Source: Arenicella sp.
Lineage (GTDB): Bacteria > Pseudomonadota > Gammaproteobacteria > Arenicellales > Arenicellaceae
DNA length: 33,185 nt
NCBI GenBank assembly: GCA_023301745.1
Contig: JALZVW010000010.1
Location: forward strand, 1-33,185
Direction: 5' to 3'
Position 1 is the first letter of the stretch, and every line of letters begins with the position of its first letter. The notes below the pieces were generated by a model that had not been told where the DNA came from, did no database searches, and was given only the letters and a program-made list of their open reading frames with translations. A program made the translations under genes and the position numbers. Of the stretch, positions 6,415-30,932 are shown piece after piece.

Positions 6415-7117
6415 ATTTTTCGTGTCATTCAAATCATTAATATGCCAACAAGATAAGGGATTCCAACTAGGCACACAAGGCAGTGGTACCCAACGCTTTG
6501 AATATTCATTTTATATATATGTGCGCTGACTTCTAACTACTAAGACTTATAGGCTTGGGGAATAATTAGCTATGATTCGCTGTATAAAAGCGAGCCAATT
6601 TAGGTGTGCGCGGGAGGCTCTATTAACTTGATTCTCTAATCGCGCAAGGCTAAATGAGCACGTTTGCGTAAAAAAATCACATCTAATGAGCTTACCTGTC
6701 CTAACCCAAAGCCATCTCCATACTAAATAAGTTAGACCGCCTAGCGAATGATTGTTTCGCGAGCGTGAGGGTTTGAACTGTGTTGTACGATGCTACTTCA
6801 TTCTCTTTTGAGGCTCTGCTGAGGGCGTCGAGATCGTTAATGCGTTGAAACCAATGCCATGAATATTGTCATCTTAGGAACCTATCTAATAGCGTTGAGT
6901 TGGCCTATCGGAGTTCCCAATCATGTAATCTGATTATGGTAACTCGGTGCTATTTCGGTGTCTCATATAAACTAATTCTAAAACTATTCAGAGTGTGGCG
7001 TTATACTCTTGGCACATCGCCGTTTGTGTTTTATTTACAAACCAGTCGACTTGGTAGCCGGTGTATTTAACACTGACGATTAATTTACTATACGGCCGTG
7101 TTTGGTCTAGGGTTCAA
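6415..7117. other. Gene-free region of about 700 bp
   Basis: I found no convincing gene here on either strand. Open frames are very short (the longest noticed is a 24-codon frame starting near 6858) and lack Shine-Dalgarno sites. No tRNA-like cloverleaf or clear terminator was seen. It must hold the promoters of the lipoprotein gene (minus) and of the small membrane protein (plus); a TATACT hexamer at 7002-7007 could be a -10 for the latter but lacks a good -35. A small RNA cannot be excluded. Confidence 0.5.
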
Positions 7118-7573
7118 ATGGGACTATCAGCAGATTTCTGGATCGAATTAGCCGGCATGGCTATTGTCTTTTGTTTGGTTATTGTTGCAATTCCAAAGTA
7201 CCGTGCGCATAAAGTTAATACGGCGCTGGCCCATCGTCTTCGGGTGGAAATTTCTGACAATATAAAATTTGTACTTCCCAATATTGCTGATACGTCGGTG
7301 CAGCGCCTTGACGCTAATGGCCGGTTATCGAATGACTCTACCGCGTTAAAAATTGGTTTGCATCAACTCGATAGTGTGATGGGCCGTGCTGAGGTTTTGT
7401 ATTCAGAAGAGAGGGATCGGGTCGCTCGGTTTCGCAATGGTTTTCATGCCCTTATCGCGAGATACGATGCCGGTGAATTGTTGTCGGACATGACCGAAGA
7501 CTTAATACTTTTGGGTGAGCGAATTATTTTAGATCTAAAAGAAAATGGTCTGCTGAGCACCATTGGCCGCTAA
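7118..7573 (+). CDS. Hypothetical single-pass membrane protein
   Basis: I do not recognise this 151-residue protein. The ATG at 7118 is preferred over one at 7061 because an AGGG Shine-Dalgarno lies about 5 nt upstream and the protein then starts with a short polar segment and one transmembrane helix (about residues 8-26, LAGMAIVFCLVIVAIP). The rest is predicted helical and charged, with sequences such as ALAHRLRVEISDNIKFVLPN and VLYSEERDRVARFRNGFHAL, suggesting a cytosolic helical domain after an N-terminal anchor. Its stop overlaps the 3' end of the convergent DUF2520 gene by 4 bp. Confidence 0.7.
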   Translation: MGLSADFWIELAGMAIVFCLVIVAIPKYRAHKVNTALAHRLRVEISDNIKFVLPNIADTSVQRLDANGRLSNDSTALKIGLHQLDSVMGRAEVLYSEERDRVARFRNGFHALIARYDAGELLSDMTEDLILLGERIILDLKENGLLSTIGR

Positions 7574-8430
7574 GCCTTTTGCTTCAATGCTTTGCGCAAC
7601 GACTCGAGTTGCTGATCATTGAGTTCATTTTTCTGTACCGCGATTGCGAGCGCGCGTAAGCCGAGATCAACATAACTGTTTTTGAGCTTAGCTGAGTGTG
7701 TTTCAAGGTTTTTAATGTGTGAGGCTACGGTTGCATGATCGCCTCTAGCGATTGGCCCACTCAAGGATTCGATGGCTCCTTTGTGGCTGATGTTTTCTAA
7801 TGTTGTTTGGATCAAGGGCTGTAACGATGTCCAAAACAGGTCTCGGTCTAAACCTGCAGCGGCGGCAGATTCTAAGCTCATATCCATTAACGATGTTAGG
7901 TAGTTGCAAGCGAATACGCAGGCGGCGTGGTACAAAGGTTTGGCTTTACGATCAATGCTTAGACTGACGAACCCGGCGCTTTCAAATAATGGGTGCAATG
8001 TTTCTAAAGCACGGGCGTCTCCTTCGGCGTACAAGTAGCTGCCGTGATCTTCAGATGAGAACAGGGCAAGGGCACTCTCTAGAGTCGGGAAGGAGTTTAG
8101 TGGGTGTGTTGACGCTATCGCACAGCCATTTTCCTGTGCCGATGAAAGCACTGTGCTGTCGAGCGCCCCAGAGCAATGGCTAACGATGCAACTTGTCGGA
8201 AAAAATGGTGCTAGTTGCCGGCATAGGCTTTCAATGGAAGCGTCATCCACACATAAGAACACGATGTCAGCGCATTCGACCGCCGACACTTGGGCCTGCG
8301 TCGGTCGGCCTATATTTACAACTGAATAACCTAGCTGTTCAAACAGTTGAGTCAAACTTTGACCCACCTTACCCAAGCCGATAACGACAATTTTGTTTTG
8401 TTCGGGTTTAATGAGTTTTGGCTGGTTCAT
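7570..8430 (-). CDS. Rossmann-fold, DUF2520 dehydrogenase-like protein
   Basis: NAD(P)-binding protein of the ProC/6-phosphogluconate-dehydrogenase-like superfamily with a C-terminal DUF2520 domain. The glycine-rich loop VVIGLGKVGQSL is at residues 15-26; the second part (about 150-280) is helical and includes KAKPLYHAACVFACNYLTSL and the GPIARGD motif typical of this family, which recalls ketopantoate-reductase-like folds. Substrate is unknown. Its ATG overlaps the yheS stop by 4 bp (ATGA), so translation is coupled and the gene is the last in the valS-yheS unit. 286 aa is normal for the family. Confidence 0.85.
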   Translation of the reverse strand: MNQPKLIKPEQNKIVVIGLGKVGQSLTQLFEQLGYSVVNIGRPTQAQVSAVECADIVFLCVDDASIESLCRQLAPFFPTSCIVSHCSGALDSTVLSSAQENGCAIASTHPLNSFPTLESALALFSSEDHGSYLYAEGDARALETLHPLFESAGFVSLSIDRKAKPLYHAACVFACNYLTSLMDMSLESAAAAGLDRDLFWTSLQPLIQTTLENISHKGAIESLSGPIARGDHATVASHIKNLETHSAKLKNSYVDLGLRALAIAVQKNELNDQQLESLRKALKQKA

Positions 8431-17819: not shown

Positions 17820-18362
17820 TTAACGTCCTTTGGAAACATTTTTTGCCCGATGCTTAGCGAGATTTTGTTTCTTGTCTTTTTCACCTTGTTGCGTTGATTT
17901 TACGATTTTAGTGTTGGTGATGATGTCGTGCCAGGCGCGTTTTTGGCGGTCCAGCAAAATCCAAGTAAAGCCTAAACCTAGACAGGCCCAGGAAATCAAG
18001 GCGGCTAAATAGCGTTTTAGCGCGGTGTTCCAGTCAATGAATTTGCCATCTGGTTTTACAAGGTATAGGTTCCAGGCTTTCATCCCAAGGGTTTGGCCGC
18101 CGTGAGTCCAGAACCAACCATAGAAGAAAAAACTAACACAAATAACATTGATACTAACAATGGTGCCACCAATGATGCGCCCAAGGTCGCTGCGCTCAAT
18201 CAGGTTCGGATTAGCGGGGTCTGGTATGGCAAAAAAAGAATCCGGGCCCAGCCAGGTAAAAAGGCCCATGAGCAGCGCAGATGTAAAGAACGCAAGGGCG
18301 ATCAGTAATAAGCCGTCGTAAATTATGACGAGTATGCGTTTGAAAAGGCCGATTGTTTGCAT
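17820..18362 (-). CDS. RDD-family inner membrane protein
   Basis: A 180-residue RDD-domain protein of unknown transport or accessory function. It has three hydrophobic helices at about 11-35, 64-84 and 118-137, the RDD signature arginine and aspartate (R9 and D16 in FKRILVIIYDG), the GQTLGMKAWNLYLV segment typical of the family, and a final LDRQKRAWHDIITNTKIV motif at about 137-154. The last 25 residues are strongly basic and cytosolic. An RDD gene next to lptG is common in related bacteria, as far as I recall, but a functional link is not established. Confidence 0.9.
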   Translation of the reverse strand: MQTIGLFKRILVIIYDGLLLIALAFFTSALLMGLFTWLGPDSFFAIPDPANPNLIERSDLGRIIGGTIVSINVICVSFFFYGWFWTHGGQTLGMKAWNLYLVKPDGKFIDWNTALKRYLAALISWACLGLGFTWILLDRQKRAWHDIITNTKIVKSTQQGEKDKKQNLAKHRAKNVSKGR

Positions 18363-18439
18363 TTTTGTATTCTTTGTTTGTTTTTATTCGCGGAAAACGA
18401 AAGTTGTACACAGTTTTTGATGTAAAAGGCATTTAGGTC

Positions 18440-18530
18440 AATTAGCCAATCTATTTATTAAACTTTATAATTAAAGCTTCTTAAGTTTTTGATTTTATTG
18501 ATTTAAATAAATTGATTAAAAAATAGACAA
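18440..18530. other. AT-rich tract beside DnaA boxes
   Basis: This 90-bp stretch is markedly richer in A and T than its surroundings (for example TTTATTAAACTTTATAATTA). It lies about 50 bp from an inverted pair of consensus DnaA boxes. It carries no convincing gene; the apparent frame on the minus strand at 18481-18753 is not supported. Confidence 0.6.
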
Positions 18531-18568
18531 TCACCCTCAGCCGTAGACTTAATCGATGTTGGCAATAC

Positions 18569-18603
18569 TTGTTCACAAAGTTATCCACAGTTTTTGTGGA
18601 TAA
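18569..18603. promoter_or_regulatory. Inverted pair of consensus DnaA boxes
   Basis: TTATCCACA (18581-18589) and its exact reverse complement TGTGGATAA (18595-18603) face each other with a 5-bp gap. A weaker relative, TTGTTCACA, sits at 18569-18577, and TTGTACACA at 18404-18412. Both strong copies match the E. coli R1-type 9-mer. It is not beside dnaA, rpmH or gidA, so it is more likely a DnaA titration, reactivation or regulatory site than oriC. The pair could also form a hairpin of 9 bp. Confidence 0.75.
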
Positions 18604-18883: not shown

Positions 18884-20053
18884 ATGGCCAACACTTTTCA
18901 CTATCTCGATAAAGCATTGTCTCAAGTTCGTGATCTCGGCTTAATGCCGGAAAAAGTAGATGAGGCCCCGGTGGTATCTCTATTAGAAAAACTAAGCGAT
19001 ATTGATGAAGCTAAGATTGTTGCGATTGCCCGTACCTTGTCTCAAGCATCGGTTTTCAACGATATTGTGCGTGAGCAAGTCTCGGAGATGCGAGTTGGCT
19101 CTCGTTATGAAAAGATTACCGAGTCATTTAATTCCATTCGAGATGATGCTAAACGTATGGTTGGGCAGGTAGATGATGGCAAGGTCGATACCTTTGAGCG
19201 CCTTAGTAATGTTTGGATGAAAGTGACTCGTGGCGATATCGCTTCACGCTTTGACGCGATAAAAGAGGTCTACCTTGAGGTTGCCAATGACTCACGAGAA
19301 CAAATTGAACGTGAAAGAGTAATTTTAGAGGCTTATCAGGACTTTCGCGGTGCGATTAAGCAATCTGAGATATATGCTCTTGATGTACTTAAGCAAACTG
19401 AATCGATTTGGAACGAGTCTAAAGGTGCCTTGAAGCACGCCAATGACACGGTTGCGGCCTATGCCGGTGATGACTTAGCTGAGCGTGCGAAGTTAGAGTT
19501 GTCACGCGATGAGCAAATGCGTGAGCTGCAGTTTAGTGAAGATCGATATCAGGTGGCTAAGGATATTTCTGACAACCTGACGGTCAGCTATAACACCTCT
19601 GAGGTTATTATGGCGCGCTTGATGCAAACTAATAGCGCAAAAGAACGTGTCTATAAGCAAGCGATTACGTTCTTCGGCACGAATGAGTCAGTATTGACTG
19701 CATTGACCGCGTCGTTCACCGGATTGTTTGGCTTGCACGAAAGCACACAAACATTGGAAGCCATGAAAGAGGGCGTATCTAAGAGTTTAGAGGACTTAGC
19801 TGACATTGGTGGCAAAGTTCAAGAGGCGGCCGTTAAGGCTGGCTACGGCCCGACTATTCGTGCTGACGCGGTTAAAAAACTGGTTGATTCGGTGGTCAAT
19901 TTTCAAGAGAGGTCGCTCGAAATTATTGATGAGATGCGTGTGTTGTCGACTAAAAACGCGGAAGAAATTCGTGAGTCGGTAGAAGACGGTAAACAGCGCA
20001 TGGCGAAGATAATTGAACGAGGCGGTTCGTTGCCGTTGTCGCATAAAGTCTAG
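18884..20053 (+). CDS. TelA-like helical cytosolic protein
   Basis: A 389-residue, almost wholly helical protein without signal peptide or membrane segment. The pattern of its middle and last parts (DSREQIERERVILEAYQDF near 136-154; VQEAAVKAGYGPTIRADAVK near 315-334; EIIDEMRVLSTKNAEEIRES near 346-365) resembles the TelA/toxic-anion-resistance family, but the match is from memory and moderate. Similar proteins are sometimes labelled 'cell surface protein', which the lack of a signal does not support. A GGGGGAAACC Shine-Dalgarno precedes the ATG. It is the first gene of a tight three-gene operon (25 bp and then 2 bp gaps) with a membrane protein and a coiled-coil protein. Function is unknown; an envelope-stress or membrane-associated scaffold is a guess. 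Confidence 0.75.
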   Translation: MANTFHYLDKALSQVRDLGLMPEKVDEAPVVSLLEKLSDIDEAKIVAIARTLSQASVFNDIVREQVSEMRVGSRYEKITESFNSIRDDAKRMVGQVDDGKVDTFERLSNVWMKVTRGDIASRFDAIKEVYLEVANDSREQIERERVILEAYQDFRGAIKQSEIYALDVLKQTESIWNESKGALKHANDTVAAYAGDDLAERAKLELSRDEQMRELQFSEDRYQVAKDISDNLTVSYNTSEVIMARLMQTNSAKERVYKQAITFFGTNESVLTALTASFTGLFGLHESTQTLEAMKEGVSKSLEDLADIGGKVQEAAVKAGYGPTIRADAVKKLVDSVVNFQERSLEIIDEMRVLSTKNAEEIRESVEDGKQRMAKIIERGGSLPLSHKV

Positions 20054-20078
20054 AGTTTAGCAATTACGGAATTCCTCA

Positions 20079-20987
20079 ATGGTTGCGAAAACTGAGAAAG
20101 CCCCGCTAGAAGAACTTATGGCGGCAATGGATGTGGTCGATACGCTTCGCCACGACAAAAGCATTGCCGAGCGAGAGCTCGACGGTGAAGGGCGACGTGA
20201 ACGCTTACTGCAACGTTTGCGAGACATGTACGCAGCACAAGGGATTGAAGTGCCCGACCGTGTTATCGAACAAGGCATAGACGCGCTTGAGCAAGAGCGT
20301 TTTAAATACCAACCGGTTGAGCCAAGCTGGCGCACCAAACTGGCAAGTGTCTGGGTTAGTCGTTCTCGGTGGGGTAAGCCGGTTGGGTTCCTCATGGTGG
20401 TGGCCACCGCTTTCTATGGTTACTATTTTGTGTCAGAGGTCTTGCCTGAACGAGCTTTGCGGGCCAATTTGCCGGGTCAAGTTAATAGTACATTTTCTAG
20501 TATCGTCGCAATTGCTAAGAACCCCGAGGTGATAGATCAAGCGAAGGCCTCGTCGGCAAGCGCGTACAGCGCTATTGATCAAGAAAATTTTGAAGAAGCT
20601 CAAGCAATTGTCGCTCAGATGCAATCGGTAAGAACTCAACTTGGTTTAGAGTACAGTATTAGAGTGATCTCTAAACCAAATCAAAGCTCAGGCATTTGGC
20701 GTAATCCACCGAATAAGCCAACGATCAAAAACTATTACCTTATTGTTGAAGCGATTGATAAGAGTGACCGAGTTGTAGAACTTACTATCTTCAATCAAGA
20801 AAACAACCAAGCTACTCGTAAAAAGAGCTGGGGATTGAGAGTGAGCGAAGAAACATTTTATAGAGTAGCCGCCGATAAGAATGACGACGGCATAATCCAA
20901 GAAAATAAAGTGGGAACCAAAGCGGCGGGGTATTTAGAGCCAGTATTTAGTATACCGACAACGGGCGCAACGCTCACGGAGTGGTAA
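20079..20987 (+). CDS. Single-pass membrane protein, possibly DUF6384
   Basis: A 302-residue protein with a cytosolic helical N-terminus (residues 1-98, including MAAMDVVDTLRHDKSIAERE and QGIEVPDRVIEQGIDALEQE), one transmembrane helix at about 101-119 and an extracytoplasmic C-terminal part of about 180 residues. The outer part has a helical segment followed by a beta-rich end containing DKNDDGIIQ (266-274), reminiscent of a calcium-binding EF-hand loop but with Lys at the usual Glu12 position. The N-terminal pattern matches what I recall as DUF6384; I am not certain. It lies between the TelA-like gene and the coiled-coil gene, and probably anchors their complex to the inner membrane. Confidence 0.75.
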   Translation: MVAKTEKAPLEELMAAMDVVDTLRHDKSIAERELDGEGRRERLLQRLRDMYAAQGIEVPDRVIEQGIDALEQERFKYQPVEPSWRTKLASVWVSRSRWGKPVGFLMVVATAFYGYYFVSEVLPERALRANLPGQVNSTFSSIVAIAKNPEVIDQAKASSASAYSAIDQENFEEAQAIVAQMQSVRTQLGLEYSIRVISKPNQSSGIWRNPPNKPTIKNYYLIVEAIDKSDRVVELTIFNQENNQATRKKSWGLRVSEETFYRVAADKNDDGIIQENKVGTKAAGYLEPVFSIPTTGATLTEW

Positions 20988-20989
20988 CT

Positions 20990-22483
20990 ATGTGGACTGG
21001 GACATCAGCGCTTAAGAATATCGATCAGAGCTTACAGACACTTCGAAATGACGTTGTTCGCCTGGATGCTCAGTTGGACCAACTCACTATTCAAACCGCG
21101 AACAATCAACGCTATCGAGCTAAGCTTGTTAATGATATTGCCGGAGTGCGGCTAGCCGAGATCGAAAGCGGTGAACTCAATGCCAACTACACCGCGGCGG
21201 ACCAACAGGCCGCCGAGTTGTTGATCGAGCGCGAACAAGCGTTAGCCGACTTAAGCGCTCGTATTGATGACGTTAATGAGCAGATTCTTGAGGCTGAGAC
21301 TGAACGTGATGCGATGCTCGAAACGGTTAATGAATGCTCTGAAAAAATTGTCAAAACAGAAGGGCAGGTACAACAAAAACTTAAAGCCGATGACGCTTAC
21401 CTCGCTCAATTTAAACAGGCACAGCAAGCCGAATCGGTCGCCGATGAAGCCCAGCAAAAAATGCAGAGAGCGCAAGCAAACATGGCTGAGAAGGCCGAGC
21501 CCTACCAATCTGATGAGCTATTTAGTTATCTATGGGAGCGTGGTTATGGCACCACCAAGTATGATGCTGGATTGATCGCTCGTTTGATTGATGATTGGGT
21601 CGCAAAGGTGATTAAGTACGAGCCCTCTAGGGTTAATTATTGGAACTTAGTTGAAATTCCTAGGCGTTTAAAAGAACACGCTGAGCGTGTTGGTGATGAC
21701 GCCGATGAACAACATATGTTGCTCCAGAAGATGGAACTAGATGCCTTAGAAGCCGCGGGTGTAAAGTCACTTGAGGCTGAGCTTGAGGCGCTTCGTATTC
21801 AGTTGGACCAGCATGATGATGCCATCGAATCTATTGAGTCTGCGTTAAATCAGCATCTAACTAACAGGGCCGCTTTTGTGGCTGGTGAAGACCAATATAT
21901 TCGGGCTTGTTTGGAAAGACTCTCAAGCTCGCTAGAGCATCAGAGTTTAATATCCATTCACAGTTACGTGCGAGCAACGGTTTCACCAACGGATGACCGC
22001 CTGGTGATGGAGTTGCAAGCGCTAGAAGATGGTTTGAGTGATGTTGAAAGCGACTTAGCTGATATTCGAAATTTGTACGACCGCAAAATCGATAAACTTA
22101 AAGAGCTTGAGACAGTTAGGCGTGACTTTAAAAATTCTCGATTTGACGACGTACGTTCAGGCTTTGGAAACCAGGCCCTAATAAGTAATGTGCTGGCTCA
22201 GTTTTTACAAGGCGTTGTGTCTGGCAGTGATGTTTGGCGCGTGATAAAGCGCAATCAGCGTTATCGTAAGGTTGCCTCTGCGCCTGATTTTGGCAGTGGT
22301 GGACTTGGTGAAATTGCCGACATGATTGGTGGAGAGATTATGCGCCAAGGGCGTCGCCAGCGCCGTTCTAGTCGCGGCTCAACCTGGCATTGGCCTCAAT
22401 CGCGTGGCGGCGGCGGGGGATTTAAAATGCCTCGAGGTGGCGGAAATTCTGGCGGTGGCTTTAAAACGGGCGGTGGCTTTTAG
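20990..22483 (+). CDS. Long coiled-coil protein with glycine-rich tail
   Basis: From the ATG at 20990 (GGAG Shine-Dalgarno at 20978-20981) the protein has 497 residues; the GTG at 20981 is a less likely start. Residues about 5-165 and 230-390 are coiled coil rich in Glu, Gln, Ala and Asp. Between them lies a globular segment with SYLWERGYGTTKYDAGLIAR and KYEPSRVNYWNLVEIPRRL. After the second coil comes a small helical part (ISNVLAQFLQGVVSGSDVW), then a basic patch (RQGRRQRRSSRG) and a tail of Gly-rich repeats ending in GGGFKTGGGF. There is no signal peptide. It follows the membrane protein gene by 2 bp. Function is unknown; I do not recognise the family. Confidence 0.75.
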   Translation: MWTGTSALKNIDQSLQTLRNDVVRLDAQLDQLTIQTANNQRYRAKLVNDIAGVRLAEIESGELNANYTAADQQAAELLIEREQALADLSARIDDVNEQILEAETERDAMLETVNECSEKIVKTEGQVQQKLKADDAYLAQFKQAQQAESVADEAQQKMQRAQANMAEKAEPYQSDELFSYLWERGYGTTKYDAGLIARLIDDWVAKVIKYEPSRVNYWNLVEIPRRLKEHAERVGDDADEQHMLLQKMELDALEAAGVKSLEAELEALRIQLDQHDDAIESIESALNQHLTNRAAFVAGEDQYIRACLERLSSSLEHQSLISIHSYVRATVSPTDDRLVMELQALEDGLSDVESDLADIRNLYDRKIDKLKELETVRRDFKNSRFDDVRSGFGNQALISNVLAQFLQGVVSGSDVWRVIKRNQRYRKVASAPDFGSGGLGEIADMIGGEIMRQGRRQRRSSRGSTWHWPQSRGGGGGFKMPRGGGNSGGGFKTGGGF

Positions 22484-22533: not shown

Positions 22534-22565
22534 AAAAAAGGCCAGCATTGATGCTGGCCTTTTTT
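22534..22565. terminator. Bidirectional intrinsic terminator between coiled-coil operon and sodB
   Basis: A stem of AAAAAAGGCCAGCA against TGCTGGCCTTTTTT with a TTGA loop ends in a T-run on each strand. It serves the three-gene operon (plus) and sodB (minus), which converge here. Confidence 0.92.
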
Positions 22566-22583
22566 GATGCTTACCTCGTGAGC

Positions 22584-23168
22584 TTACCCCGCGAAATTGG
22601 TCGCTGCGAACTCCCAGTTGGCAATTTCCCAAAAGTTTTTTAGATACTCCGGGCGGGCGTTACGGTAATCCACGTAATAGGCGTGTTCCCAGACATCAAC
22701 CGTTAGCAAAGGTGTGATGCTTTGGTCGGTAATGGGAGTGTCGGCGTTACTGGTATTCACTATAGCTAGAGAGCCATCAGCATTTTTAACTAGCCATGTC
22801 CAGCCTGAGCCAAAGTTACCTGCCGCACTGGCGGTAAACTTGGCTTTAAATTCTTCAAATGAACCGAACGCGTGGTTGATCGCATCACTTAGTGCGCCGG
22901 TTGGCTCGCCACCAGCATTTGGTGCTAAGCTGTTCCAGTAAAAAGTGTGGTTCCATATTTGAGCTGCGTTATTGAAAACGCCGCCAGCGCTAGAGCGAAT
23001 GATTTCTTCGAGCGACTTGTCGGCATCAGCGGTCCCTTCGATCATTTTATTTAGGTTTGTTACGTAAGCATTGTGATGCTTACCGTAGTGATAGTCGATC
23101 GTCTCTTCAGAGATAGTTGGCGCTAACGCGTCACGAGCATACGGTAAGGCGGGTAATTCGATGGACAT
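22584..23168 (-). CDS. sodB: Iron superoxide dismutase
   Basis: Cytosolic enzyme that converts superoxide to oxygen and hydrogen peroxide. The 194 residues contain the metal ligands H27, H74, D158 and H162 (DVWEHAYYVDYRN). Gln70 in AAQIWNHTFYW and the pattern SAAGNFGSGWTWLV mark the iron type rather than the manganese type. Start ATG at 23168 has an AGGAG Shine-Dalgarno about 8 nt upstream. It is divergent from pykA across about 258 bp and is single-gene with a shared terminator. Confidence 0.97.
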   Translation of the reverse strand: MSIELPALPYARDALAPTISEETIDYHYGKHHNAYVTNLNKMIEGTADADKSLEEIIRSSAGGVFNNAAQIWNHTFYWNSLAPNAGGEPTGALSDAINHAFGSFEEFKAKFTASAAGNFGSGWTWLVKNADGSLAIVNTSNADTPITDQSITPLLTVDVWEHAYYVDYRNARPEYLKNFWEIANWEFAATNFAG

Positions 23169-28239: not shown

Positions 28240-30360
28240 TTATGGTTTAGCCGCACTTTTTGCTAGTTCGACCAGTTGAATGAACTCTTGACGGTAACCA
28301 TCAGGGTCGTCTCCCTTATTTAAGCGCGCCATGTTTGCAATATCGTCCAAACTCATGCCGCTGATGTATTTGTCTCCTTTTAAATATTCAGCAAAACTTG
28401 CGGCCGCGATTGAAAATTCCACATCTTTATTGCCTTTAGTTTGCTCAGCACTGATTGTTTTTTCAATCAGTTTTGAGCTGTCTTTGTTGGGTAGTTTGTA
28501 ATGTATTTTCAAAAGACCATATTCATTTGAATTGTTGACCTTGGATCGTGTCTCTTCAGCTTCCTGGTAAGTTAGCGAGTCTGTCGTGTTTTGTTGGCTA
28601 GTAGGGGTAATCTCATAAATAGCGGTGATCGTATGGCCTGAGCCGACACTGACTGCATCGGTTTTGTCCTTACTAAAACCTTCACGGCTTGCTCGGCCGG
28701 CTTGATAACCAACTAAGCGATAGTCGCGCACGGTTTGAGGGTTAAATGCTAGCTCAAGGTTCACATCTTTTGCACGAGTGAGCGGCGCCGACTTAGCGTG
28801 ATCGAGTAACACTTTGTTCGCTTCGTTGAAACTATTGATGTACGCCACGGAGCCGTTGTCGTTTTGCATCAAGTGTTGAGCTACATCATCGTGGTAACGA
28901 TTGCGACCAAAGGCGAGTATTGACAAGAGTGCTCCGTCGAGTGGTTTGCGCTTCACTATGGTTCTAAGTGAAACGATGTGTTGCTGGTCGAGCTTATGGG
29001 TGCCATCGGTCGCTAGGATTATTTTGTTCCGCGCATCATGTTTGAATCGTTCTTCGGCCAACTGATATGCGCGCGAAATTGCCGCATCGTCGGTCATGGT
29101 CCCTCCGGCGTTTATCTTCTCAAACGCGCTTAGAATGTTAGCGTTGTTAATTACTTGTGTCGGTTCGAGGGCCACTTCGGCCGTGCTCGAATAAACGATG
29201 ATACTAATCGTGTCAGTGGGCTCTAATGCACTAAGCAGTGTGCTAATTGAGTGTTTGAGCATCGGCAATTTGTTTTCAACATTCATGGAATCAGATATGT
29301 CGACTAAGAAAACCAAATTGCTGTTGGTGGCCTCATCTTGTTTGGTGCTATAAGCCTTGATGCCAATATGAATCAGTTTTTTTGATTCGTTCCATGGCGA
29401 GTCAAGCACTGACACACTGGCTTTAAGTGGTGATGATTTTGACTCAGGATATGGGTAGTTGTAGCTGAAATAGTTAATAACCTCTTCCGTTCGAATCGCC
29501 GCCGCTGCTGGCAAAAAACCTCCTTGCAATTGATTACGCAATAAGCGGTAAGAGTTGGTATCAATATCAGCCAAGACGGTAGGTGCGGGCGCTTGTTCGA
29601 CGAGGTTTGATTCGTTCTCCTTATCGGGCGTGTATTGGTCGCCAAGGCTCTTTTGCCGAGCCATTGGAACCAGTGCTGCTCCGGCCTGACTAAACGTATC
29701 TAGCCTAGGCTTAAGAGCCGATGAGTCGGACTGTGGTTTAGTTGATGTTTTCGATAAGCTCTTGGGTGTTGGTTCTACTTTCTTTGTTTCGATTTGTTGG
29801 GCATTGGTTGGCGCTTGTGCTGCCCGAGCGCCACTAACGGCTATTTCTTCTAGAGTAGTCGTTGCTTGCGAATCGACTATTACTGATTCAGGCAAAGACT
29901 GAGATTCAATTTCCATCGTCATTGATAAATCGGAGTCAGAGTTAGGGTTCGATGGCTCGATGAGGCCTTCCATATCAGGATTGAAGGCCGGTGACTCAAT
30001 CGTTTGAAGGTGATCACTGGCGTCTGATGCCAACTCTGGGTTGGCTGTGCTTAACGCAGGGTTTTGCGCTGTATGCTTAGGCATCTGATCGACCACGGCG
30101 AAAGAAATAAACCCTATCGCGATAGTTGCAAACACGCGGCCAGTATTCGGGCCTCTAATAACGGCCATTAGCCGCGTCCATATTGAATTTTTTGAGCTTG
30201 GTGTATCTTGTCTATCAATATGCTGAGTTGAAACTAATGTTGCATGGTTTTTTTCTTCAGAAAATTTTGCAAGCGCTGAATTAATGGCAATTTTCTTGGC
30301 GTTTGAATCGGCTTCAGGAATAGTTGCGTCTAATAGGCTATCGATGTGGTTTTGCTTCAT
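28240..30360 (-). CDS. Membrane-anchored VWA-domain protein, YfbK-like
   Basis: A 706-residue protein with a cytosolic N-terminus (about 1-72, starting HIDSLLDATIPEADSNAK), one transmembrane helix at about 74-92, a long low-complexity linker (about 95-255), then a YfbK-type region. That region has an N-terminal piece (DTNSYRLLRNQLQGG, EEVINYFSYNYP), a von Willebrand factor A domain with the metal site D354-I-S356-D-S358, T421/T423 and D452, and a C-terminal DUF3520-like end (YISGMSLDDIANMARL, DPDGYRQEFIQLVELA). Function in the family is unknown; the VWA domain suggests metal-dependent protein binding in the periplasm. Its ATG overlaps the stop of the ECF sigma gene by 4 bp, so they are coupled. 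The N-terminus may act as an anti-sigma segment, which is inference. Confidence 0.88.
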   Translation of the reverse strand: MKQNHIDSLLDATIPEADSNAKKIAINSALAKFSEEKNHATLVSTQHIDRQDTPSSKNSIWTRLMAVIRGPNTGRVFATIAIGFISFAVVDQMPKHTAQNPALSTANPELASDASDHLQTIESPAFNPDMEGLIEPSNPNSDSDLSMTMEIESQSLPESVIVDSQATTTLEEIAVSGARAAQAPTNAQQIETKKVEPTPKSLSKTSTKPQSDSSALKPRLDTFSQAGAALVPMARQKSLGDQYTPDKENESNLVEQAPAPTVLADIDTNSYRLLRNQLQGGFLPAAAAIRTEEVINYFSYNYPYPESKSSPLKASVSVLDSPWNESKKLIHIGIKAYSTKQDEATNSNLVFLVDISDSMNVENKLPMLKHSISTLLSALEPTDTISIIVYSSTAEVALEPTQVINNANILSAFEKINAGGTMTDDAAISRAYQLAEERFKHDARNKIILATDGTHKLDQQHIVSLRTIVKRKPLDGALLSILAFGRNRYHDDVAQHLMQNDNGSVAYINSFNEANKVLLDHAKSAPLTRAKDVNLELAFNPQTVRDYRLVGYQAGRASREGFSKDKTDAVSVGSGHTITAIYEITPTSQQNTTDSLTYQEAEETRSKVNNSNEYGLLKIHYKLPNKDSSKLIEKTISAEQTKGNKDVEFSIAAASFAEYLKGDKYISGMSLDDIANMARLNKGDDPDGYRQEFIQLVELAKSAAKP

Positions 30361-30932
30361 ACGGAACCTCGAGCTCTTTCGAGCTTATTTGCGTCTAAGC
30401 TCGAAGTTGTAAATGTTTTCTTCAACAGTTTGCGCGCTTCGTGAATACGCCAAGAGATTGTGCTTTCCTTAACTCCGAGCCTGCCGGCGGCGTCGGAGTG
30501 AGAAAGGCCTGTGCCATAAACTAACACTATGGTGTCTTTGAGTTCTTCTTGTAGGCTATCAATATGTTCGAGAATTTGGTGGGCATATAGCCTCTGTTCG
30601 TTCATGTTTGATACATTTGCACTTAACGTTTCGCAATGATTTTCATCAGATTCTTCTCGCCTATTGTACTGTGTTGGGCTTTTATAGAAGTCTTTAGCGC
30701 AGTTAATTACTAAACGGTATAGCCATGAGGTAAAGCTCGACTGATGCTTAAACTGAGCGATCGAGCTTGCCAGTTTAATACAGGCTAGCTGTGTAATATC
30801 TTGCGCATTGTGTTGATCGGCGCACCAACGGTAGGCAAATCGATAGATAGTGTCATAGTGCAGTTCTAGCAATTGCTCGAAAGCCGATGCGTCGCCGGCT
30901 TGGCATCGATCTATGAGCGCTTTTTCAGGCAT
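30357..30932 (-). CDS. ECF-type RNA polymerase sigma factor
   Basis: Group 4 (ECF) sigma factor of 191 residues. Region 2 lies at about 14-85 (FEQLLELHYDTIYRFAYRWC, DITQLACIKLASSI, SFTSWLYRLVINCAKDFYK) and region 4 at about 119-172, with a helix-turn-helix at about 143-170 (LSHSDAAGRLGVKESTISWR). Between them is an acidic, charged linker. No zinc-binding anti-sigma gene is adjacent; the partner is the coupled VWA membrane protein. A TGAAAC hexamer upstream (complement of 31000-31005) is ECF-like but weak evidence of autoregulation. It is divergent from the gspHIJK operon. Confidence 0.92.
   Translation of the reverse strand: MPEKALIDRCQAGDASAFEQLLELHYDTIYRFAYRWCADQHNAQDITQLACIKLASSIAQFKHQSSFTSWLYRLVINCAKDFYKSPTQYNRREESDENHCETLSANVSNMNEQRLYAHQILEHIDSLQEELKDTIVLVYGTGLSHSDAAGRLGVKESTISWRIHEARKLLKKTFTTSSLDANKLERARGSV

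What the first reader, a model, noticed from the sequence alone, without database searches (positions are those of the whole stretch)
18884..22483. Three-gene operon of uncharacterised helical proteins that may form one membrane-linked complex
Seen: three plus-strand genes with 25 bp and 2 bp gaps encode a TelA-like helical soluble protein, a single-pass membrane protein with a large helical cytosolic part and an outer domain, and a long coiled coil with a basic, glycine-rich tail. None has an enzymatic motif I recognise. Known: TelA-family proteins are linked to resistance to toxic anions, lantibiotics and membrane stress, with unclear mechanism. Inference: the three proteins form a cytoskeletal or stress scaffold tied to the inner membrane. 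This is the best candidate for an undescribed system here.
Basis: partly seen in the sequence, partly recalled or inferred. Interest (0 to 1): 0.7.

Follow-up and report, generated by a model that had tools for sequence, protein, structure and literature searches.

The report
Mobile three-gene membrane complex, function unknown
Three neighbouring genes of unknown function are found together, in the same order, in very different bacteria, large plasmids and a giant phage, and probably make one protein assembly tied to the inner membrane whose job is not known.

Summary
The three genes (A 18884-20053, B 20079-20987, C 20990-22483) are real, with 25 and 2 bp gaps. B is Pfam DUF6384 (E 2.4e-104); A and C match no curated family. 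A-B-C is a linked module: of 80 genome loci retrieved by A alone, 75 carry all three in order on one strand and 5 end at a contig edge. Ten of 11 A-bearing plasmids (the 11th by annotation) and Yersinia phage phiR1-37 (g190-g192) agree. By record titles hosts span Pseudomonadota, Campylobacterota, Nitrospirota and Planctomycetota, yet the module is rare (2 of 398 sampled genomes). TelA fails by sequence; structure searches give only weak TelA-like and alpha-pore-former-like resemblances. A is soluble, helical and highly conserved; B is a single-pass anchor with an outer beta domain, usually ending in Trp; C is a coiled coil whose Gly/Ser-rich tail usually ends in Phe. Best reading: a membrane-tethered assembly, most likely for envelope protection, working like TelA/XpaC or Psp without shown kinship. 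Function and direct contacts are inferred, not tested. My searches of an open-licence library found no paper on it. A palindrome of two DnaA boxes lies upstream in this genus only.

The parts
18884..20053 (+). Gene A: 389-aa soluble all-helical protein, highly conserved; residues about 241-330 are the most conserved part and hold the most hydrophobic stretch
20079..20987 (+). Gene B: 302-aa DUF6384 protein (PF19911): helical part, one membrane helix (residues 104-122), beta domain (192-300), C-terminal L-T-E-W (I-T-x-W in most relatives)
20990..22483 (+). Gene C: 497 aa from ATG (500 aa from GTG at 20981), coiled coil with conserved core (residues about 180-240) and an Arg/Gly-rich tail ending FKTGGGF
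18581..18603 (.). Palindrome of two perfect DnaA boxes (TTATCCACA-N5-TGTGGATAA) in the 521-bp gap upstream of A; a feature of this locus in the genus, not of the module elsewhere
22540..22566 (.). Hairpin with an A run before and a T run after, between C and the convergent superoxide dismutase gene; likely shared terminator, read by eye
   Evidence: not listed by the scan

Best explanation
A-B-C is an autonomous three-gene module encoding one assembly at the inner membrane. B is the single-pass anchor: helical part inside, 110-residue beta domain outside as sensor or envelope contact. A is the cytosolic core, probably self-assembling (inferred from its very high conservation), with a conserved hydrophobic patch that could touch the membrane. 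C is the coiled-coil adaptor whose Gly/Ser-rich tail with terminal Phe is a flexible docking or assembly element. The most likely job is protecting or remodelling the envelope under stress, working like TelA/XpaC or Psp systems. Shown: the genes, their linkage, membership of B in DUF6384, carriage by several phyla, plasmids and a phage, conserved ends of B and C. Inferred: transfer between phyla (from the A tree), that the proteins bind each other, the topology, and the stress role.
For: Linkage: 75 of 80 genome loci have all three in order on one strand, 5 are cut by contig ends; of 11 plasmid records with A, 10 were tested by HMM and have B and C, the 11th by annotation and size; phage phiR1-37 g190-g192. 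In a 398-genome sample A and B occur in the same 2 genomes. Distance matrices of A-B, A-C, B-C correlate 0.88, 0.84, 0.90 over 87 loci; null maxima of 500 are 0.31, 0.33, 0.19. Within 1.2 kb no fourth family recurs in 3 or more loci beyond close relatives, except two clusters of three loci. Anatomy: B has a segment of hydropathy 1.6 or more in 80 of 91 and more K+R before it than after in 72 of 92; complete B end in W in 86 of 89, complete C in F in 76 of 84. Median pairwise identity A 66%, B 42%, C 32%. TelA-type names stand at ranks 3, 9, 13, 45 of the viral structure search.
Against: No expression, phenotype or interaction data. Neighbours show no envelope-stress theme. The window's own B segment scores 1.53, under 1.6; 12 of 92 B have the opposite charge bias and 8 tie; 2 of 92 A and 10 of 88 C also reach 1.6 somewhere (ORF starts there may be too early). 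Structure matches for A are weak: no PDB hit at E 0.001 or better, and the top Foldseek rows are chemoreceptor helices. Matrix correlation also reflects shared host history. Phage Dfl-JY45 has B and C without a detectable A, and a Rhodanobacter plasmid has B without A (that search had no positive control), so the module is not always complete.
Confidence: 0.42

Rival explanations
1. A is an alpha-pore-former-fold effector: a soluble helical protein with a hidden hydrophobic head that inserts into the membrane on a trigger sensed by B and relayed by C, as a cell-suicide or inter-element conflict device.
For: The first 22 VIA rows are all ClyA-superfamily alpha pore formers (XaxA Z 14.0, rmsd 4.8, 274 aligned; AhlB Z 13.6; AhlC, SmhB, ClyA and others, down to Z 10.0; the grouping under one superfamily is recalled). 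The most conserved part of A (241-330) holds its most hydrophobic stretch and much of its least confident modelling. Carriage on plasmids and a phage.
Against: The tool's own note says helical models without a clear match typically reach Z 14; in Foldseek the best of this group has E 0.078 and chemoreceptor helices rank above it. Window A has no Pfam pore-former hit to E 1. High conservation and stable position in the genus (RDD and lptG upstream in 10 of 10 loci with upstream DNA, sod downstream in 8 of 11) are unlike typical defence effectors. PADLOC gives only partial low-scoring matches.
Confidence: 0.15
2. The module organises large DNA or cell space: a segregation or nucleoid scaffold useful to big replicons and giant phage.
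For: Carried by plasmids of 323 kb to 1.39 Mb and a 262-kb phage; B beside PRTRC genes on a Rhodanobacter plasmid; SMC-type coiled-coil similarity of C; paired DnaA boxes upstream in Arenicella.
Against: SMC scores are far below cut-off (19 against 567 bits) and cover coiled coil only. The 80 kept loci come from genome assemblies, mostly of unstated replicon type. DnaA boxes were found upstream of A only in loci of this genus.
Confidence: 0.12
3. A is a very diverged TelA and the module is a diverged TelA/XpaC toxic-anion system.
For: Four of the 50 listed viral structure matches are named TelA, tellurite or toxic anion resistance. A forced whole-length profile alignment is collinear, at probability 2.0.
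Against: hhalign probability 0.4 with 3 TelA, 2.0 and 0.6 with 24 TelA, against 0.1 for two reversed controls but 2.9 for C against TelA, so A is no nearer than C; hmmsearch best E 0.19. The TelA-named structure matches have E 0.0044 to 0.28 and TM at most 0.36.
Confidence: 0.13
4. The three proteins act separately; they stay adjacent only because they move as one DNA segment.
For: No interaction evidence; B and C occur without A in phage Dfl-JY45 and B without A in Rhodanobacter.
Against: No other gene regularly travels with them, strand never varies in 82 of 82 loci that hold all three, and spacing is operon-like (median gaps 11 and 8 bp in 81 loci).
Confidence: 0.08

Closest known systems
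DUF6384 (PF19911)
   Same: B matches over its whole length, 349 bits against a cut-off of 25
   Different: A family of unknown function by its own description; here it is shown as one of three linked genes
TelA (PF05816) and its usual partner XpaC
   Same: About 390-aa helical soluble protein beside a membrane protein (XpaC partnership recalled; a putative XpaC-TelA operon is named in PMC12791056, passages read); TelA names occur among phage proteins; weak fold resemblance
   Different: No sequence relation detected; partner B is DUF6384; C has no counterpart that I know of
ClyA-type alpha pore formers (XaxA, AhlB, AhlC)
   Same: Overall helical arrangement of the low-confidence A model
   Different: Weak by the tool's own yardstick; no Pfam match; strictly linked to a membrane anchor and a coiled-coil partner
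Phage-shock PspABC
   Same: Plan of a cytosolic helical protein plus a small membrane sensor (recalled)
   Different: No PspA, PspB or PspC match for the window proteins; outer beta domain and Gly-tailed coiled coil absent from Psp (recalled)

Membership tests
DUF6384 (PF19911) | Pfam profile match over cut-off | tested here: met
   B, E 2.4e-104, 349 bits, cut-off 25, profile 2-308 of 308
TelA (PF05816) | Pfam profile match by A | tested here: not met
   No TelA among matches to E 1 of window A or of ten more A proteins, eight from plasmids, one phage, one genus. For 45 A members only 25 of 37 matched families are shown, none TelA. The window's genome has no TelA match at E 0.001
TelA (PF05816) | Profile-profile similarity | tested here: not met
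   hhalign probability 0.4; 2.0 and 0.6 with TelA proteins from 24 ORFs out of 33 loci
TelA (PF05816) | Same fold | tested here: inconclusive
   TelA-type names at ranks 3, 9, 13, 45, E 0.0044 to 0.28, TM at most 0.36; the A model has mean pLDDT 67
ClyA-superfamily alpha pore former | Fold | tested here: inconclusive
   22 of the first 22 rows, Z 10.0 to 14.0, but helical models reach Z 14 without kinship; Foldseek best E for this group 0.078
ClyA-superfamily alpha pore former | Pore formation | not testable with these tools
   Needs an experiment
SMC or MukB-type protein | Match over cut-off with ATPase head | tested here: not met
   C: 19.1 bits against 567, coiled-coil part only; JetC 17.5 bits
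Known anti-phage defence system | PADLOC model match over most of a model | tested here: not met
   Only partial matches of 17.5 bits or less, E 1.8e-4 and above, for A and C; none for B

The most novel reading that the evidence does not exclude
A new kind of mobile three-protein system in which a nearly invariant cytosolic protein with a pore-former-like or TelA-like helical fold is held ready at the inner membrane by an anchor with an outer sensing domain and a coiled-coil adaptor with a Phe-ending Gly/Ser tail, and switches between soluble and membrane-inserted states to seal or breach the membrane; shared by bacterial genomes, megaplasmids and a giant phage.
Probability: 0.15. Interest if true: 0.88.

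Novelty: categorically new. Interest (0 to 1): 0.6.

Why it matters
A module that keeps its three genes together in 75 of 75 untruncated genome loci while appearing in several phyla, on megaplasmids and in a giant phage probably needs all three proteins for one useful job, yet two of the proteins have no family name and the third is a domain of unknown function. Database labels such as 'cell surface protein' and 'merozoite surface protein 3b' hide it. Culturable carriers (Methylorubrum extorquens AM1, Neptunomonas japonica) make it directly testable.

Tried and rejected
TelA by sequence: rejected. An apparent relation of A to C (hhalign probability 15%) proved to be a coiled-coil alignment: rejected. 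Solved-structure sequence searches: none for A, only weak helical or coiled-coil matches for B and C. Fold of B: VIA rows cover mainly residues 114-190, many of them designed or generic helical bundles, and no Foldseek match at E 0.001; the beta domain was not predicted alone, so I make no claim of a new fold. Fourth component: none; of ten neighbours from ten loci, nine have Pfam families, all different (diguanylate cyclase, DEAD helicase, MurB, shikimate dehydrogenase, BON-LysM and others), one has none at E 1e-5. In the 3-locus clusters two hold mixed genera. Shared upstream motif: boxes found only within the genus. Chromosome origin at the DnaA palindrome: GC skew is positive in all 62 blocks of a 366-kb contig, so no turning point there. 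Viral contigs: A gave 1 locus, which is phiR1-37 itself (same length and place); B and TelA gave 0. Papers: DUF6384 0; phiR1-37 with g190 1, about another phage's g190; 'merozoite surface protein 3b' with Pseudomonas 0, and 0 occurrences in the 10 listed of 60 papers. The phiR1-37 transcriptome paper PMC4848604 has 0 occurrences of g190, g191, g192 in its main text (term search; its supplement was not seen). Term searches in two megaplasmid papers (PMC8544880, PMC7070040) showed no mention of these genes in the passages returned. The Listeria TelA paper itself was not held.
Full report
What is there. The window holds three plus-strand genes, A (18884-20053), B (20079-20987) and C (20990-22483 by its ATG; the ORF tool's GTG start is 20981), with gaps of 25 and 2 bp. 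They lie between a minus-strand RDD gene (17820-18362) and a minus-strand superoxide dismutase gene (22584-23168, named by me from its translation). The window is contig C10 of a 3.05-Mb, 191-contig genome. The nearest named relatives of A are from uncultured Arenicella (Gammaproteobacteria, Arenicellales).

Families. B is DUF6384 (PF19911, E 2.4e-104). Window A and C reach no curated cut-off in Pfam or NCBIfam and give no informative PADLOC or PHROGs match (for 52 C proteins none in PHROGs at 1e-5). Among 45 A proteins the commonest weak Pfam matches are ApoLp-III (23 of 45, best E 1.6e-5) and a TetR C-terminal model (19 of 45, best 4.2e-5); I read these as amphipathic-helix likeness, not kinship. 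The A profile finds no solved structure; B and C find only weak helical or coiled-coil ones.

Distribution. In 398 genomes drawn over the phylum, A occurs in 2 and B in 2, the same two genomes, the window's own being one. In the order B occurs in 21 of 109 genomes; in the genus in 16 of 18 counting the window's own, the two without it being 81% and 78% complete. By record titles they come from Gamma- and Alphaproteobacteria, Campylobacterota, Nitrospirota and Planctomycetota, with single metagenome bins of Deinococcota, Myxococcota and Thermodesulfobacteriota. In the A tree the 8 Campylobacterota rows form one clade inside a fork (100/98) whose other rows are Pseudomonadota and the window; if the root lies outside that fork, this fits transfer, but the root is a midpoint and titles of bins can be wrong. 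Eleven plasmid records carry A and eight carry B by BLAST. Yersinia phage phiR1-37 carries A as g190, with B and C as g191 and g192 by HMM; BLAST with B missed this phage and found only cyanophage Dfl-JY45. g190-g192 bear no 'phage structural protein' note in the record, while several neighbours do.

Linkage. The 80 loci were retrieved with A alone, so the presence of B and C is an independent result. Of 80, 75 have A, B and C in order on one strand; in the other five the contig ends 69 to 755 bases after A, two of them still showing the start of B. Over all 88 loci examined in those calls, 82 have all three, always on one strand; the sixth exception is phage Dfl-JY45, with B and C and no detectable A in its record (the record search had no positive control). 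Of the eleven plasmids with A, ten were tested with the B and C profiles and all ten have both; the eleventh has an annotated DUF6384 gene and a C-sized gene in the same order. A Rhodanobacter plasmid has B without A beside PRTRC genes. Within 1.2 kb of the module, families shared by three or more loci are those of Arenicella or Pleomorphomonas, except two clusters of three loci with mixed genera, one of them holding the diguanylate cyclase beside the Neptunomonas module. Ten neighbours from ten lineages gave nine different Pfam make-ups and one blank. Median gaps are 11 and 8 bp in 81 plus-strand loci (starts there are the first start codon after a stop, so gaps are approximate).

Conservation and anatomy. 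Median pairwise identity is 66% for A, 42% for B and 32% for C over 87 loci. A is all-helical with two long helices (118-191, 198-296); mean pLDDT 67, pTM 0.55. Its most conserved part, 241-330 (column agreement 0.83 to 0.88), holds its most hydrophobic stretch (from 260), and 280-329 has pLDDT under 50. B (mean pLDDT 86) has a helical part, one hydrophobic segment, two helices and a beta domain. Hydropathy is 1.6 or more in 80 of 91 B proteins, though 1.53 in the window's own; 2 of 92 A and 10 of 88 C also reach 1.6. The charge bias puts the N-terminus of B inside in 72 of 92, opposite in 12, tie in 8. Leaving out proteins cut at contig ends, B ends in Trp in 86 of 89, usually I-T-x-W (L-T-E-W in the window). 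C ends in Phe in 76 of 84, with GGGF in 64; its last 60 residues are 45% Gly plus Ser at the median against 10% in the rest. Pseudomonas plasmids and phiR1-37 keep the plan with Ser-rich ends such as SSDSF, though one of the three plasmids printed ends in Leu.

Is A a TelA? By sequence no: hhalign probability 0.4 with three TelA proteins, and 2.0 and 0.6 with 24 (from 33 loci), against 0.1 for reversed controls but 2.9 for C against TelA; best hmmsearch E 0.19. By fold the answer is open: in the viral structure library, TelA-type names stand at ranks 3, 9, 13 and 45 (E 0.0044 to 0.28, TM at most 0.36). Against PDB chains, the first 22 VIA rows are all ClyA-type alpha pore formers (best XaxA, Z 14.0, rmsd 4.8, 274 aligned). 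But the tool warns that helical models reach Z 14 without kinship, and Foldseek finds nothing at E 0.001 and ranks chemoreceptor helices first. I treat both as leads.

What it most likely does. Shown: three linked genes with conserved ends, carried by several phyla, plasmids and a phage. Inferred: one assembly, with B as anchor and outer sensor, C as adaptor, A as the core. The high conservation of A, far above B and C, suggests that most of its surface is in contact with something invariant, most simply other copies of A. I place envelope protection first because the plan (soluble helical protein, small anchor) resembles TelA/XpaC and Psp (both recalled). A Listeria mutant in a TelA homologue showed 4-fold higher nisin and 2-fold higher tellurite susceptibility (Collins 2010 as cited in PMC12791056, passages read). 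This step is analogy only. A pore-former-like effector and a large-replicon organiser are the main rivals.

Upstream element. In the 521-bp gap before A lies TTATCCACA-N5-TGTGGATAA, two perfect DnaA boxes head to head. The pattern occurs in 15 of 18 genus genomes, once each except twice in one. In the genus loci where it was found with A on the same stretch it lies upstream of A; in G401 it lies near a contig end next to RDD and lptG. No such box was found within 400 bp upstream of A in the loci of other taxa, so it belongs to this locus, perhaps to the RDD gene, and not to the module. GC skew over a 366-kb contig of a relative shows no switch there.

Novelty. DUF6384 is catalogued, but no paper on a three-gene system was found: searches for DUF6384, for phiR1-37 with g190 and for the label 'merozoite surface protein 3b' gave nothing on these genes. 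The library holds open-licence papers only. I rate it categorically new in the sense that no known system was found to share its parts; if A proves to be TelA-like by structure, it would drop to a new variant of a known kind.

Noticed in passing
window 18581-18603: Palindromic pair of perfect DnaA boxes, present in 15 of 18 genomes of the genus, once per genome except in one; not an origin by GC skew of a relative's contig.
   Followed up: partly
window 18400-18580: AT-rich stretch with further DnaA-box-like words (TTGTACACA, TTGTTCACA) and ATTGATTAAAAA, with similar words at the same place in some relatives; it looks like a DnaA-binding region away from the origin.
   Followed up: partly
L031 (Dolichospermum phage Dfl-JY45) 7008-9739: A cyanophage carries B and C side by side but no detectable A.
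   Followed up: partly
L029 (Rhodanobacter denitrificans plasmid) 6960-8393: A DUF6384 gene stands beside PRTRC plasmid genes without a detectable A.
   Followed up: partly
window 28240-30932: A YfbK-type von Willebrand factor protein with a sigma-70-family (ECF) gene just upstream, likely one operon.
   Followed up: no
L120, L122, L179 (Pseudomonas plasmids): Gene A is annotated 'merozoite surface protein 3b', a misleading transferred name.
   Followed up: no
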